From NCBI GenBank assembly GCA_018903055.1, contig JAHIPW010000132.1, forward strand, positions 1 through 5,668: DNA of 5,668 bases, written 5' to 3'. The number at the start of each line of letters is the position of its first letter. Within the stretch, counting starts at the first letter, position 1. The DNA comes from DRGV01 sp018903055 [NCBI: bacterium] (GTDB taxonomy: Bacteria; UBP18; UBA7526). The notes below the pieces were generated by a model. It saw only the letters and a program-made list of their open reading frames with translations. It searched no databases and was not told where the DNA came from. Shown one piece after another: positions 1,109-5,668 of the stretch. A program made the translations under genes and the position numbers.

Positions 1109-1618
1109 AAGAGAGAATTAAGAGTGAATGAGGCCATCTCGGCAAAAGAAGTGAGATTGATTGGCAGAGAAGATAATCAACTGGGAGTCATGGATATCGG
1201 AAAGGCTCTGGAGATTGCGAAAAGAGAGGGTTTAGACTTAATAGAGATTGTTCCCCAGGCCTCTCCCCCCGTCTGCCAGGTAATGGACTATGGGAAGTTT
1301 AAATACTGGCGAGAGAAAAAATTGCGAGAAGCAAGGAAGAAACAGAAGATCTATGAAATTAAGCAAGTGAAGATGAGAATTAAAATTGGAGAGCATGACT
1401 ATCAGGTGAAGAAACGCCTGGCCCTGAAATTCTTGGAAAGAGGAGATAAGGTTAAGGTGACCATCATGTTCTTAGGGAGACAGATCTCCTATCCTGAGTT
1501 GGGTCGGCGCCTTTTAGACAGATTGATTGAAGAGACAAACCAGATATCGGAAGTGGAGAGCAGTCCCAGACTGGAAGGCCGCAATATGACCATGGTTCTC
1601 AAATCAAAACACGGATGA
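1106..1618 (+). CDS. infC: Translation initiation factor IF-3
   Basis: IF-3 binds the 30S subunit, prevents premature 50S joining and rejects non-canonical initiation codons and tRNAs. With the proposed ATC start the protein has 170 residues; with the alternative GTG at 1097 it has 173. The normal length is about 165-180, so length does not decide. The N-domain (about 5-67) contains RVNEAISAKEVRLIG and the signature PPVCQVMDYGKFKY (54-67). A lysine/arginine-rich linker helix follows (about 68-81), then the C-domain with EHDYQVKKRLALKFLERGDK and ending EGRNMTMVL. ATC is preferred because the Shine-Dalgarno sequence GAGGTGA overlaps the GTG and is correctly spaced for ATC. The last codons (SKHG and stop) lie in a repeat that continues into the intergenic space. 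It heads the infC-rpmI-rplT group; rpmI begins 94 nt later. Confidence 0.95.
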   Translation: MKRELRVNEAISAKEVRLIGREDNQLGVMDIGKALEIAKREGLDLIEIVPQASPPVCQVMDYGKFKYWREKKLREARKKQKIYEIKQVKMRIKIGEHDYQVKKRLALKFLERGDKVKVTIMFLGRQISYPELGRRLLDRLIEETNQISEVESSPRLEGRNMTMVLKSKHG

Positions 1619-1695
1619 GCACGGATTACAAAACAGATGAGCACGGATTAAATCAGTGCTAATCAGTATGATAAAATCTGTGCTAATCTGTGCTT
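1605..1695 (+). repeat. Degenerate inverted/direct repeat cluster, infC 3' end to rpmI
   Basis: Two tandem copies of CAAAACA(CG)GATGAGCACGGATTA lie at 1605-1628 and 1629-1650; the 15-mer GATGAGCACGGATTA is identical at 1614-1628 and 1636-1650. They are followed by roughly complementary copies, AATCAGTGCTAATCAG (1651-1666) and AATCTGTGCTAATCTGTGCT (1675-1694). The whole can fold as an imperfect hairpin. The internal period is about 10 bp (AATCTGTGCT twice). The infC stop codon TGA (1616-1618) is inside the first copy. No T-run or promoter is evident. The rpmI Shine-Dalgarno sequence GAGGA (1703-1707) lies just beyond it. Confidence 0.8.
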
Positions 1696-1712
1696 AAGAA
1701 GCGAGGAAAGAG

Positions 1713-1910: not shown

Positions 1911-1928
1911 AGTGCCATAGGCACTTTT
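1911..1928 (+). terminator. Small terminator-like hairpin after rpmI
   Basis: AGTGCC (1911-1916) pairs with GGCACT (1920-1925) around the loop ATA, and the T at the stem end opens a run of four T (1925-1928). It abuts the rpmI stop directly. The short stem and T-run suggest a weak or partial terminator, or a processing or stability element, because rplT downstream would normally be on the same mRNA. Confidence 0.4.
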
Positions 1929-1929
1929 G

Positions 1930-1964
1930 GTTTACCGTTCACGGTTAACGGTTAACGGTAAACG
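1930..1964 (+). repeat. Heptamer array GTTAACG x5, palindromic
   Basis: Five consecutive 7-bp units: GTTTACC, GTTCACG, GTTAACG, GTTAACG, GTAAACG. The outer parts form perfect 10-bp inverted repeats, GTTTACCGTT (1930-1939) and AACGGTAAAC (1954-1963), so the array can also fold as a hairpin. It fills most of the rpmI-rplT gap and ends 13 nt before the rplT Shine-Dalgarno sequence. Confidence 0.85.
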
Positions 1965-1977
1965 AACCGAACAAAGT

Positions 1978-1989
1978 GAGGTTTTCATG
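1978..1989 (+). promoter_or_regulatory. rplT ribosome-binding site and start
   Basis: GAGG at 1978-1981 lies 5 nt before ATG at 1987. This fixes the rplT start. The frame is also open upstream to a TTG at 1927, but that segment is the hairpin T-run and the heptamer palindrome, not L20 sequence. Confidence 0.8.
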
Positions 1990-2370: not shown

Positions 2371-2505
2371 TTGGTTATCGGTAATCGGTTGCGGTTACGC
2401 AGCTCGTCACGGTAATCGTCAAACGTCTTTCGTAAAAAGACGCAACCGATAGACGTAAGACGAAACGAGCCTCGCAACCGAAAAACGAATGACGAAAGAC
2501 GGAAT
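2360..2505 (+). repeat. Composite heptamer/palindrome cluster after rplT
   Basis: The cluster starts inside rplT with GTAATCA, GTGATTG, GTTATCG, GTAATCG, GTTGCGG (2360-2394), five 7-bp units. ATCGGTTGCG (2384-2393) is exactly complementary to CGCAACCGAT (2441-2450), and CGCAACCG recurs at 2473-2480. GCTCGT (2402-2407) pairs with ACGAGC (2465-2470). CGTCTTT (2424-2430) pairs with AAAGACG (2436-2442) around a 5-nt loop. Further heptamers are AGACGTA, AGACGAA (2451-2464) and ACGAATG, ACGAAAG, ACGGAAT (2485-2505). The result is a nested fold-back structure in the rplT-ktrB gap. None of its hairpins has a T-run, and I see no convincing promoter. Confidence 0.75.
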
Positions 2506-2513
2506 TCTTTAAA

Positions 2514-2549
2514 TTCTGCGACCTCTGCGTTTTTTCTGTGACCTCTGCG
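2514..2549 (+). repeat. 16-bp direct repeat upstream of ktrB
   Basis: TTCTGCGACCTCTGCG (2514-2529) is repeated with one change as TTCTGTGACCTCTGCG (2534-2549), offset by 20 bp, with T-rich sequence between. Each copy itself holds two CTCTGCG-like halves. It ends 6 nt before the ktrB Shine-Dalgarno sequence AAAGGAG (2555-2561). It resembles, from memory, short dispersed repeats seen in environmental bacterial genomes. Confidence 0.7.
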
Positions 2550-2566: not shown

Positions 2567-3886
2567 ATGGCGAAGGCCAGACTGAATCCGGCTCAGATCC
2601 TTGCTCTGGGCTTTCTAGCCGCTATTACCATAGGGACCATCCTTCTCTCCCTACCCATAAGCACGGCCAATGGTCAGAGGCTTCCCTTTGTGGATGCCCT
2701 TTTCACCGCAACCAGTGCCACCTGCGTTACTGGTCTGAAAGTGGTCGATACCGGAAGTTATTTCTCTCTCTTCGGCCAACTGGTCATATTAGTGCTCATT
2801 CAGCTCGGTGGCTTGGGGATCATGACCATGGCCACATTATTTGGCCTCATGATTGGCAGGCGCCTTGGCCTGCGGGAAAGGTTGGTTGTCCAGGAGGCCC
2901 TGAAGCACTCTACCCTGGGAGGGATAAGGGTTCTCTTAAGATATGTTATTATTCTGACCCTGAGCATCGAGGGATTGGGAGCCATCTTTCTCTATCTGAG
3001 GTGGAAAGGGATGGGTATTAGTTATCCTGGGTACTGTGCCGTATTCCATGCCGTCTCCGGCTTCTGCAATGCCGGGTTCTCCCTTTTTAAAGATAGCCTG
3101 GTAGGTTACCAAGCTGATCCGGTAATAAATGTTACCATGCTTCTTCTAATTATTCTGGGTGGATTGGGATTTACTGTTCTAACCAATCTCAGAAGATATC
3201 GCCCAGGGAAGAAGGAGACCTTAAGCCTCCATACCAAAGTAGTCCTATCCATGACTTTCTTCCTCATCGTTCTCTCTGTCCCCCTTATTTTCCTTCTGGA
3301 AAGAAATAATACTCTAAGCACTCTCCCTGTGGGGGGAAAGATACTAGGGGCCGTCTTTCAAGCCATTACCCCCCGAACAGCGGGCTTCAATACCTTAGAA
3401 ATTGGCCAGATGAGGGGAGCAAGCCTCTTTCTATTGATGATATTAATGTTCATCGGCGCCTCTCCTGGTTCTACCGGGGGAGGAGTAAAAACCTCTACCT
3501 TTGGAGTCTTCCTGGTCACTATCTGGACCTTCTTCCGAGGGAAAAAAGAGATAACTATTTTTAAAAGAACCATTTCTCATAAAGTCACCAGAGAGATATT
3601 AACGGTCGTTGCCTTTGCCTTTGGTTTAGTTGTTTTAGCGACCTTTCTTCTCTTACTTACTGAAGGAAAAGAATTCATTAAAGTCCTCTTCGAGGTCTTT
3701 AGTGCTTTTGGCACGGTTGGATTATCAACGGGAATAACCGATACTCTCTCTAATCTGGGACGAATCATAATCACCATCACCATGTTTATGGGGAGGATCG
3801 GCCCCTTAACCATTGCTGTGGCCATGGGTCAGAGGGAATACGCGCCATTATATAAGTATCCGGAAGAGAGAGTGATGATCGGCTAA
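2567..3886 (+). CDS. ktrB: KtrB/TrkH-family potassium uptake channel subunit
   Basis: Inner-membrane K+ translocating subunit of 439 residues, matching the KtrB length of about 440-450. It shows the fourfold M1-P-M2 architecture of the Trk/Ktr/HKT superfamily. The four pore loops with filter glycines are ATCVTGL (G56), FCNAGFS (G170), RTAGFN (G273) and GTVGLS (G385). The intramembrane gating loop GASPGSTGGGVKTSTF lies at 297-312. The conserved arginine of the last M2 helix is R410 in MFMGRIGPLT. The opening FVDALFTATSATCVTGL and GQLVILVLIQLGGLGIMT are typical of KtrB. The start ATG has AAAGGAG (2555-2561) 5 nt upstream. The next gene encodes a single-RCK KtrA, which supports Ktr over Trk (TrkA usually carries two RCK modules). 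In other bacteria ion coupling is often to Na+; nothing here tests that. The position between rplT and pheS is unusual. Confidence 0.93.
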   Translation: MAKARLNPAQILALGFLAAITIGTILLSLPISTANGQRLPFVDALFTATSATCVTGLKVVDTGSYFSLFGQLVILVLIQLGGLGIMTMATLFGLMIGRRLGLRERLVVQEALKHSTLGGIRVLLRYVIILTLSIEGLGAIFLYLRWKGMGISYPGYCAVFHAVSGFCNAGFSLFKDSLVGYQADPVINVTMLLLIILGGLGFTVLTNLRRYRPGKKETLSLHTKVVLSMTFFLIVLSVPLIFLLERNNTLSTLPVGGKILGAVFQAITPRTAGFNTLEIGQMRGASLFLLMILMFIGASPGSTGGGVKTSTFGVFLVTIWTFFRGKKEITIFKRTISHKVTREILTVVAFAFGLVVLATFLLLLTEGKEFIKVLFEVFSAFGTVGLSTGITDTLSNLGRIIITITMFMGRIGPLTIAVAMGQREYAPLYKYPEERVMIG

Positions 3887-3888
3887 AC

Positions 3889-4011
3889 AGTTCGGAGTTA
3901 ACAGTTCAGAGTTCGGAGACAAATACACCGAACACCGAACTCACCTCGTGCCGAGCACTCGGTGCGAGGCAAGCGACCCCGACCAATGGTCAGGAGAGCG
4001 TGCTCCGAACT
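3889..4011 (+). repeat. Composite inverted-repeat element between ktrB and ktrA
   Basis: A 123-bp element begins 2 nt after the ktrB stop and is bounded by exact 9-bp inverted repeats, AGTTCGGAG (3889-3897) and CTCCGAACT (4003-4011). Left part: four heptamers AGTTCGG, AGTTAAC, AGTTCAG, AGTTCGG (3889-3916). Then come complementary units CCGAACA, CCGAACT (3928-3941), which pair with 3903-3916 with two mismatches. Centre: CCTCGTGCCGAG (3944-3955) and CTCGGTGCGAGG (3958-3969) form a GC-rich 12-bp stem with two G-T pairs. GACC/GGTC (3981-3991) makes a further small hairpin. There is no T-run. It ends 9 nt before the ktrA Shine-Dalgarno sequence. Confidence 0.8.
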
Positions 4012-4035
4012 ATATAAGCAAAGGAGGAATAAAAG

Positions 4036-4737: not shown

Positions 4738-4743
4738 AAATTG
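4729..4743 (+). promoter_or_regulatory. pheS ribosome-binding site and TTG start
   Basis: AAGGA at 4729-4733, inside the last codons of ktrA, lies 7 nt before TTG at 4741. The in-frame TAG of ktrA (4735-4737) rules out a start further upstream, and the first in-frame ATG (5161) is deep in the conserved domain. TTG is therefore the only sensible start. Confidence 0.8.
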
Positions 4744-5668
4744 AAAGAGAGACTTCTGAAAATTCGGAAAGAGATAGAAGAAGCCCTTAAAAAGTCCCAG
4801 ACCCTTGAGGAATTAGAGGCTCTGAGGGTAAGGTATCTGGGGAGGAAAGGTTTTCTTACTCTCTTTATCCAGGGAATAGGAAAATTGCCCAAGGAGCTAC
4901 GTCCCTCCCTAGGGAGATTGGCAAACGAGATAAAGAAGGACTTAAATCGAAAGATAGAAGAAAGGAAAGAGAGACTTAAAGAAAAGCGAGTCCTACCTTC
5001 CCTTGATCTCACCCTTCCAGGAAAGAAGCCCTCCTTGGGCGGACTTCATCCCATAACCCAGGTTCTAGATGAGGTAACAGGAATCTTTTCAAGATTGGGC
5101 TTTCGCATCGTTCAGGGCTCAGAAATAGAGACCGATTACTATAACTTTGAAGCCCTTAATATGCCTCCCGGTCATCCAGCGAGAGGAATGCTTGATACCT
5201 TCTACTTACACAGTCAAAAGTCAATAGTCAATAGTCGAAAGCCAAAGAAGACACGTAAAGATTTCGTCTCTCGTCCCTCATCCCGCGTCCCTCAATTTTT
5301 ATTAAGAAGTCATACTTCTCCCGTTCAAATCCATGTTATGGAGAAGGAGAAACCTCCCATCCAGATTATTTCGCCGGGCAAGGTATATAGATATGAGGCA
5401 GTGGATGCCAGCCATCTCCCTATGTTCCATCAGGTGGAGGGGTTTATGGTCGATGAGGAAATTAGTTTTTCTCATTTAAAAGGAGTATTAGAAGTCTTCC
5501 TGAACGAATTATTCGGCCCAGACACCCCCATTCGATTTCGTCCCTCCTTCTTCCCTTATACTGAACCTTCTGCAGAGGTAGATATCGGTTGTCTCATCTG
5601 TAAGGGGAAAGGATGCTCAGTCTGTAAGAGAACCGGGTGGCTGGAGATCTTAGGTTCCGGAATGATCG
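4741..5668 (+). CDS. pheS: Phenylalanyl-tRNA synthetase alpha subunit (3' end outside window)
   Basis: Catalytic alpha subunit of the alpha2-beta2 PheRS that charges tRNA-Phe; 309 residues are visible and the frame is open at the right edge. The N-terminal coiled coil (about 1-85) starts MKERLLKIRKEIEEALKKSQ with TTG read as Met, and includes LRVRYLGRKG. The catalytic domain opens at LGGLHPITQV (about 99-108). Then come ETDYYNFEALNMPPGHPAR (130-148), DTFYL (152-156), LLRSHTSPVQ (187-196), motif 2 (PGKVYRYE, R217), FHQVEG (229-234) and FFPYTEPSAEVD. A CxxC-CxxC cluster (Cys 284, 287, 292, 295) is typical of many bacterial PheS. The sequence stops at GSGMI, before the end of motif 3. Odd feature: residues 157-186, where relatives have about 5-18, are encoded by heptamer repeats, yet frame and flanks are intact. 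It appears translationally coupled to ktrA. pheT is expected downstream. Confidence 0.96.
   Translation, partial: MKERLLKIRKEIEEALKKSQTLEELEALRVRYLGRKGFLTLFIQGIGKLPKELRPSLGRLANEIKKDLNRKIEERKERLKEKRVLPSLDLTLPGKKPSLGGLHPITQVLDEVTGIFSRLGFRIVQGSEIETDYYNFEALNMPPGHPARGMLDTFYLHSQKSIVNSRKPKKTRKDFVSRPSSRVPQFLLRSHTSPVQIHVMEKEKPPIQIISPGKVYRYEAVDASHLPMFHQVEGFMVDEEISFSHLKGVLEVFLNELFGPDTPIRFRPSFFPYTEPSAEVDIGCLICKGKGCSVCKRTGWLEILGSGMI
5212..5292 (+). repeat. Two heptamer arrays inserted in frame within pheS
   Basis: Array 1 (5212-5246) has five 7-bp units: AGTCAAA, AGTCAAT, AGTCAAT, AGTCGAA, AGCCAAA. Array 2 (5265-5292) has four: CGTCTCT, CGTCCCT, CATCCCG, CGTCCCT. They are separated by 18 bp of non-repeat sequence. 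The insert-derived codons run about 5209-5298 and encode a basic, serine-rich peptide (HSQKSIVNSRKPKK, then TRKDFVSRPSSRVPQF). Conserved PheS sequence ends at DTFYL and resumes at LLRSHTSP. The architecture matches the intergenic heptamer arrays elsewhere in the window, but the unit sequences differ. Confidence 0.85.

What the first reader, a model, noticed from the sequence alone, without database searches (positions are those of the whole stretch)
5209..5298. Repeat element captured in frame inside pheS
Seen: between the conserved PheS blocks DTFYL and LLRSHTSP there are 30 residues, made largely of two heptamer arrays, and the frame is kept. Known: E. coli and Bacillus PheS have only about 5-8 residues here, while Thermus PheS, as I recall it, has a longer loop of about 18, so the site tolerates length change. 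Rickettsia palindromic elements are the known precedent for repeats inserted in frame in essential proteins. Inference: an intergenic-type repeat entered an essential synthetase gene and is translated as a surface loop of strong net positive charge. A basic loop in a tRNA-binding enzyme could be neutral or could touch tRNA.
Basis: partly seen in the sequence, partly recalled or inferred. Interest (0 to 1): 0.75.

Follow-up and report, generated by a model that had tools for sequence, protein, structure and literature searches.

The report
Repeat DNA translated inside an enzyme
In an uncultured bacterium a short stuttering DNA repeat of the kind usually found between genes sits in frame inside the gene for an essential enzyme, and relatives carry different repeats at the same spot, which suggests that some protein loops repeatedly catch such DNA and tolerate it.

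Summary
The window encodes PheS, and between DTFYL and LLRSHTSP there are 30 in-frame residues made largely of two period-7 arrays (lag-7 identity 0.57; 0 of 2000 shuffles as good at any lag 5-12). Three close relatives have 4 residues there, so it is an insertion. The unit AGTCAAT is dispersed in this genome: exact double units lie at four places. Array A shares 25 identical bases with an array outside genes in another genus of the family.

The case is not isolated. A fourth relative has an unrelated octamer array at the same PheS site, and the three genomes held of another small phylum have three different repeats there. In the window's phylum the same happens before a beta-strand motif in RsmE (period-7 loops in 5 of 6 genomes) and NnrD (4 of 5). 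In RsmE the two closest genomes carry different units. Best explanation: a family-wide pool of 7-8-nt arrays enters genes, and only stop-free, frame-keeping copies in tolerant turns survive. Loop charge varies from +8 to -1, against a conserved tRNA role.

In-frame repeat capture and intergenic heptamers are both known; repeated capture at fixed loops with changing units is a new variant. No reads or proteomics were available.

The parts
4741..5667 (+). pheS, phenylalanyl-tRNA synthetase alpha subunit, cut by the window end
5209..5298 (+). in-frame insert of 30 codons (residues 157-186) that replaces a 4-residue turn; net gain 26 codons
5212..5246 (+). array A: five heptamer copies, AGTCAAA AGTCAAT AGTCAAT AGTCGAA AGCCAAA
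5266..5295 (+). array B: degenerate heptamers of the type GTCCCTC; the whole insert shows no hairpin with array A
1600..1700 (+). repeat hairpin of the same general kind in the gap between infC and rpmI
   Evidence: fold z -6.53; TRF 1605-1650 and 1675-1694
1929..1964 (+). GGTTAAC heptamer array before rplT; variants of this unit occur inside rsmE of G005
   Evidence: fold of 1915-1985 z -2.11
2371..2515 (+). repeat hairpin in the gap between rplT and trkH
   Evidence: fold z -3.10
3886..4020 (+). repeat hairpin in the gap between trkH and trkA, AGTTCGG-type heptamers with inverted partner
   Evidence: z -6.82

Best explanation
The 90 bases are a short tandem repeat element of heptamer arrays, drawn from a pool dispersed through this genome and its family, that landed in the DNA for a tight turn between two beta-strands of PheS. 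It survived because it is stop-free in the pheS frame, changes length by a multiple of three, and lengthens an unconstrained loop. Shown: the insertion, the empty sites in relatives, the dispersed unit, the open frame, and the same thing with other units at this site and at other loops. Inferred: that arrays move by copying, that the loop is surface-exposed, translated and close to neutral, and that the coding sites recur mainly because few loops tolerate them. The copying step itself (template switching, a helper enzyme, or gene conversion between arrays) is not identified.
For: Empty site in 3 of 5 pheS-bearing genomes of the phylum. A different octamer array, 41 residues, in G004, whose flanks are 85.0 and 90.0% identical to empty G003. 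Three different repeat loops in the 3 genomes held of G034's phylum. AGTCAATAGTCAAT occurs 8 times at 4 places in G000, once in G001, twice in G003, and once in 1 of the other 54 genomes searched; the reversed control occurs in none of G000, G001, G003 and once each in 3 of the 60. 25 bases identical to an array in G003 C44 that lies between long frames. RsmE loops with period 7 in 5 of 6 genomes and NnrD loops in 4 of 5, of which two are identical. In RsmE the closest pair G000/G001 (88.2% in flanks) has different units, while G000/G002 (77.8%) and G001/G004 (75.7%) share unit types. The insert has one open frame of six.
Against: No reads, proteomics or population data, so translation and assembly rest on the kept frame and the flanks. 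The window insert does not fold as several elements outside genes do (z +0.90; 161 of 200 shuffles fold at least as well), so it may be decayed or two separate arrays. AGTCAAA, which avoids the in-frame TAG, also occurs in the G003 array outside genes, so it is no proof of selection after insertion. No target duplication or end sequence was seen by eye; no search for one was made. Outside these two phyla no such PheS loop was found, but most genomes were judged by match span alone, and 133 of the 368 genomes with a PheS match were not examined. Array B's unit pair was found nowhere else in the 128.8 kb of G000 held.
Confidence: 0.82

Rival explanations
1. Local birth: the arrays arise at each site by polymerase slippage from a short local seed, without movement. 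Heptamer length reflects a polymerase property, as proposed by Mrazek and co-workers (seen as cited in PMC4679880 and PMC4692102).
For: Units differ between sites and genomes. The empty G002 site holds AGTAAAA, one base off the unit AGTCAAA. Heptamer excess across bacteria is described in the passages seen of those papers.
Against: The same unit recurs at four unrelated places in G000, and a 25-base stretch recurs in another genus. RsmE unit types are shared across genera while the closest pair differs. Some arrays come with an inverted partner array, which slippage alone does not give.
Confidence: 0.13
2. Functional loop: the basic insert was selected to touch tRNA or another partner.
For: Net charge +8 in the window's loop; PheS is part of a tRNA-binding enzyme.
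Against: Five repeat-type loops at the site have unrelated sequences and charges +8, +3, +2, +1, -1. Close relatives do without it. The model gives the loop and its edges pLDDT near 42.
Confidence: 0.04
3. Assembly or binning error, or a pseudogene.
For: Repeats can mislead assemblers; the genome is a fragmented assembly (191 contigs).
Against: The frame is kept and the other five frames are closed. Both flanks are clean PheS. Separate assemblies show other inserts at the same site.
Confidence: 0.02
4. The long loop is ancestral and the short loops are deletions.
For: Some bacterial lineages have longer loops at this site.
Against: 74 of 78 matches among named relatives have 5 residues. Three of five genomes of the phylum are short, and the two long ones are unrelated in sequence.
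Confidence: 0.02

Closest known systems
Rickettsia palindromic elements (RPE) and Wolbachia protein-coding palindromes
   Same: repeat DNA found between genes and also in frame inside genes for conserved proteins, tolerated as extra residues (review PMC2229807, passages seen; Wolbachia from a reference title there)
   Different: RPEs are 105-146 bp elements with terminal inverted repeats; here the units are 7-8 nt arrays whose sequence differs between sites, and the window's copy is not a palindrome
Cyanobacterial STRR and other intergenic heptamer repeats (TAACTGA in Beggiatoaceae, GGGAATC in Xanthomonas, GGGGA(T/C)T in Nostoc)
   Same: 7-nt tandem units dispersed mainly between genes, sometimes as inverted pairs; copies inside genes are already reported (11% and 7% of repeats in two xanthomonads; 25 Beggiatoaceae proteins) (PMC4679880 abstract and two sections, PMC2670836 and PMC4692102 passages)
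   Different: those reports centre on one unit per genome, and TAACTGA copies in genes lie mostly at protein ends; here many units coexist and arrays sit at the same internal loops of core enzymes in several relatives
Borg amino-acid tandem repeats
   Same: DNA tandem repeats translated as disordered segments (PMC9879509, passages seen)
   Different: Borg in-gene units are divisible by three; here units of 7 and 8 nt run through all three phases
Heptanucleotide repeats in the cyanobacterial tRNA-Leu intron and RNase P RNA
   Same: arrays captured at a tolerant loop of a functional gene (recalled, not read here)
   Different: RNA genes, not protein genes

Membership tests
Rickettsia palindromic elements | in-frame presence inside genes for conserved proteins | tested here: met
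Rickettsia palindromic elements | palindrome able to form a long stem-loop | tested here: not met
   window insert z +0.90; other PheS inserts vary: G041 -10.66, G004 -3.30, G034 +0.29; G042 not folded
Rickettsia palindromic elements | one conserved element sequence shared by the copies | tested here: not met
   units differ between sites and genomes
dispersed intergenic heptamer repeats (STRR-like) | tandem 7-nt unit | tested here: met
dispersed intergenic heptamer repeats (STRR-like) | same unit at several, mainly intergenic places of the genome | tested here: met
   of the four G000 places two lie outside frames of 100 residues or more, one overlaps the end of a long frame, and one is pheS. 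Shown for array A's unit only.
cyanobacterial STRR sensu stricto | host is a cyanobacterium | not testable with these tools
Borg amino-acid tandem repeats | unit length divisible by three inside genes | tested here: not met
   period 7 here, 8 in G004
TAACTGA repeats | unit TAACTGA | tested here: not met
   unit is AGTCAAT, which is no rotation or complement of TAACTGA (compared by eye)

The most novel reading that the evidence does not exclude
In these uncultured phyla short arrays of 7-8 nt units form a fast-moving class of micro-elements that copy into preferred places, including the DNA of particular turns in core enzymes (PheS, RsmE, NnrD), where the units are then exchanged faster than the gene diverges. 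The same coding site would be a long-term landing pad, refilled with different units.
Probability: 0.3. Interest if true: 0.75.

Novelty: new variant of a known kind. Interest (0 to 1): 0.52.

Why it matters
It extends protein-coding repeat capture beyond Rickettsia-type elements to arrays whose unit does not match the codon length, and shows the same loops holding different units in relatives. That makes two questions testable by comparing genomes: how such arrays spread, and which protein loops tolerate foreign sequence. It also warns annotators that odd loops in proteins from assembled genomes can be genuine repeat translations.

Tried and rejected
A repeat origin of other long PheS loops. 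From the wider sample 35 stretches were fetched (19, 16). A script gave 24 loops for a periodicity test, and none reached fewer than 12 of 1000 shuffles (lowest G021, lag 12); the G035 entry among them is probably a false pattern match. Seven genomes' loops could not be read for sure (G374, G206, G317, G072, G245, G109, G035); a few others were short and seen by eye only. G024 and G033 were tested (P 0.41, 0.22). The Omnitrophota record L077 has a 13-residue loop (pattern count), but its periodicity is not significant (P 0.33), so it is not counted. The first fold of the G004 insert used wrong coordinates (L119) and was replaced by L007. A third phylum was sought through L077, but the best handles were only 54-56% identical. 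A structure search only confirmed PheS; the model (mean pLDDT 70.6, pTM 0.49) is too poor to place the loop relative to tRNA. MiaB of G000 (+7 residues) was set aside as weak, because the relatives are only 54-58% identical.

Full report
What is there. The window is contig 124 of a 1.085 Mb assembly in 191 contigs, with thrS (cut), infC, rpmI, rplT, a trkH-like and a trkA-like gene, and pheS cut by the end (names other than pheS are recalled from the sequences, not from a search). In pheS the stretch 5209-5298 encodes 30 residues between DTFYL and LLRSHTSP. Array A (5212-5246) has five heptamer copies; array B (5266-5295) is a degenerate pyrimidine-rich heptamer array. The best lag of 5-12 is 7, and 0, 0 and 8 of 2000 dinucleotide shuffles do as well for the whole, A and B. 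Of the six frames only the pheS frame is open.

It is an insertion. In the same phylum (6 genomes held, 5 with a PheS match) G002, G003 and G005 have four residues there, SKNT or TKNT. Among 80 named relatives 78 pattern matches were found and 74 have five residues between DTFY and the L-L-R block; one of the four others is a spurious match, and two loci gave no match. A survey with a profile of short-loop PheS hit 368 of 386 genomes; 150 places, the best-scoring, were listed, and by eye five of them had clearly longer spans (558-576 nt against 540 for the model). Five more genomes are the repeat cases (G000, G004, G034, G041, G042). Of the 213 other matched genomes 80 were examined (all 15 split ones included) and 133 were not. 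Long or split cases were fetched and read as far as possible: 24 loops were tested and none was a significant tandem repeat (lowest 12 of 1000 shuffles); seven genomes' loops could not be read for sure. So repeat-type loops were seen in 5 of 228 genomes, most of the rest judged by match span alone, and the five belong to two small phyla.

Same site, other repeats. G004, whose flanks are 85.0 and 90.0% identical to the empty G003, carries 41 residues built on the octamer AATCGGGG followed by a degenerate array that pairs with it (fold z -3.30). In G034's phylum the three genomes held differ: CCAAAAT heptamers in G034 (fold z +0.29); GCGGATT heptamers with their reverse complement in G041 (z -10.66); a 10-nt period in G042. 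All are in frame, and 0 of 2000 shuffles are as periodic.

Where the unit comes from. AGTCAATAGTCAAT occurs 8 times at 4 places of G000, once in G001, twice in G003, and once in 1 of the other 54 genomes searched (G053); the reversed control gives none in G000, G001 and G003 and one hit each in 3 of the 60 genomes, G053 among them. Twenty-five bases of array A are identical to an array in G003 that lies about 24 bases before a GlmU-like frame (the name is recalled). In 128.8 kb of G000 periods of 7 and 8 make up 34 of 86 arrays. Of 13 elements outside confirmed coding inserts that I folded, chosen partly because they showed paired arrays, 9 fold with z of -3.1 or lower (three in gaps of the window; the gene context of most others was not settled), and 4 do not (window 1915-1985 -2.11, L002 +0.14, L003 -0.43, L004 -1.59). 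Three of those four hold AGTCAAT. The pheS insert does not fold either (z +0.90), which speaks against calling it an intact hairpin element.

Other genes. Sampled contigs showed arrays inside further conserved genes. RsmE has a variable loop just before ITVFIGPEGGF: 5 of 6 genomes have a period-7 loop (0 of 2000 shuffles each), and the sixth, G003, has a palindrome-like loop without period (P 0.60). NnrD before IITPHPGEMARL has period-7 loops in 4 of the 5 genomes whose match reaches this region (0-3 of 2000 shuffles); G003 and G004 are identical there, so three distinct arrays, and G002 is short. In RsmE the closest pair, G000 and G001 (88.2% in flanks), carries different units, whereas G000 and G002 (77.8%) share an ATCC(A/C)GG type and G001 and G004 (75.7%) share an ACATC(C/T)C type. 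So the array seems to be exchanged or replaced faster than the gene diverges; this rests on one gene. In G041 the LeuB-like protein (Pfam Iso_dh; the name is recalled) has an octamer array where G034 has a short loop, G042 giving no match to the pattern used, and UvrC has an array as well. For scale, 75 reciprocal best pairs of G000 or G004 against G003 (18,056 aligned residues, at least 50% identity) hold only 15 indel segments of 4 or more residues; three are the two pheS inserts and one more is a clear heptamer case.

Stops. An exact AGTCAAT array has a stop in every frame of both strands within 21 nt. The pheS copy reads through because the units in the TAG phase end in A. That variant also occurs in the G003 array outside genes, so it may have been present on arrival.

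Mechanism. The shared unit pool and the unit exchange favour copying between arrays over local slippage; the copying machinery is unknown. The loop joins two beta-strands in a low-confidence model (strands 154-157 and 185-188; residues 150-191 all below pLDDT 50, strands included), and in the three solved PheS chains whose alignments were shown the flanking blocks are one to three residues apart. Charges of the five repeat loops run from +8 to -1, against a conserved tRNA role.

Literature. In-frame capture in conserved proteins is known for RPEs (PMC2229807, passages). Intergenic heptamers, with a minority inside genes, are known (PMC4679880, abstract and two sections; PMC4692102, passages; PMC2670836, passages). 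Borg repeats in genes have units divisible by three (PMC9879509, passages). In the listings of searches I saw no paper on heptamer arrays captured in PheS or repeatedly in the same protein loops; only the top titles and abstract starts were seen, and the library holds open-licence papers only.

Noticed in passing
L214-L219 (rsmE of six genomes): The loop before ITVFIGPEGGF holds period-7 arrays of different units in 5 of 6 genomes; unit types are incongruent with flank similarity.
   Followed up: yes
L220-L224 (NnrD of five genomes): The loop before IITPHPGEMARL holds heptamer arrays in 4 of 5 genomes; G003 has a further 24-residue palindrome-like in-frame insert near the N-terminus.
   Followed up: partly
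L206:15779-17158 and L204:1810-3507 (G041): A LeuB-like dehydrogenase and UvrC carry octamer and heptamer arrays in frame.
   Followed up: partly
L191 frame at 5040 and L188 frame at 1 (G000): In-frame inserts of 13 and 17 residues, rich in GC palindromes by eye rather than tandem repeats, relative to G003.
   Followed up: no
L187 frame at 7084, minus strand (G000): A six-residue insert DIRYQK with lag-7 identity 0.79 relative to G003, in a gene not identified.
   Followed up: no
window 1600-1700, 2371-2515, 3886-4020: Three gaps between genes of the window fold into hairpins with z -3.1 to -6.8, with short-repeat arrays, each with its own unit.
   Followed up: partly
L002 (G000 C128), array near 1501-1534: The end of a long frame overlaps an AGTCAAT array, so the repeat seems to supply its last residues and stop.
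   Followed up: no
G003 and G004: An NnrD match is 97% identical between them while PheS flanks are 85-90%, which suggests recombination or shared contigs between assemblies.
   Followed up: no
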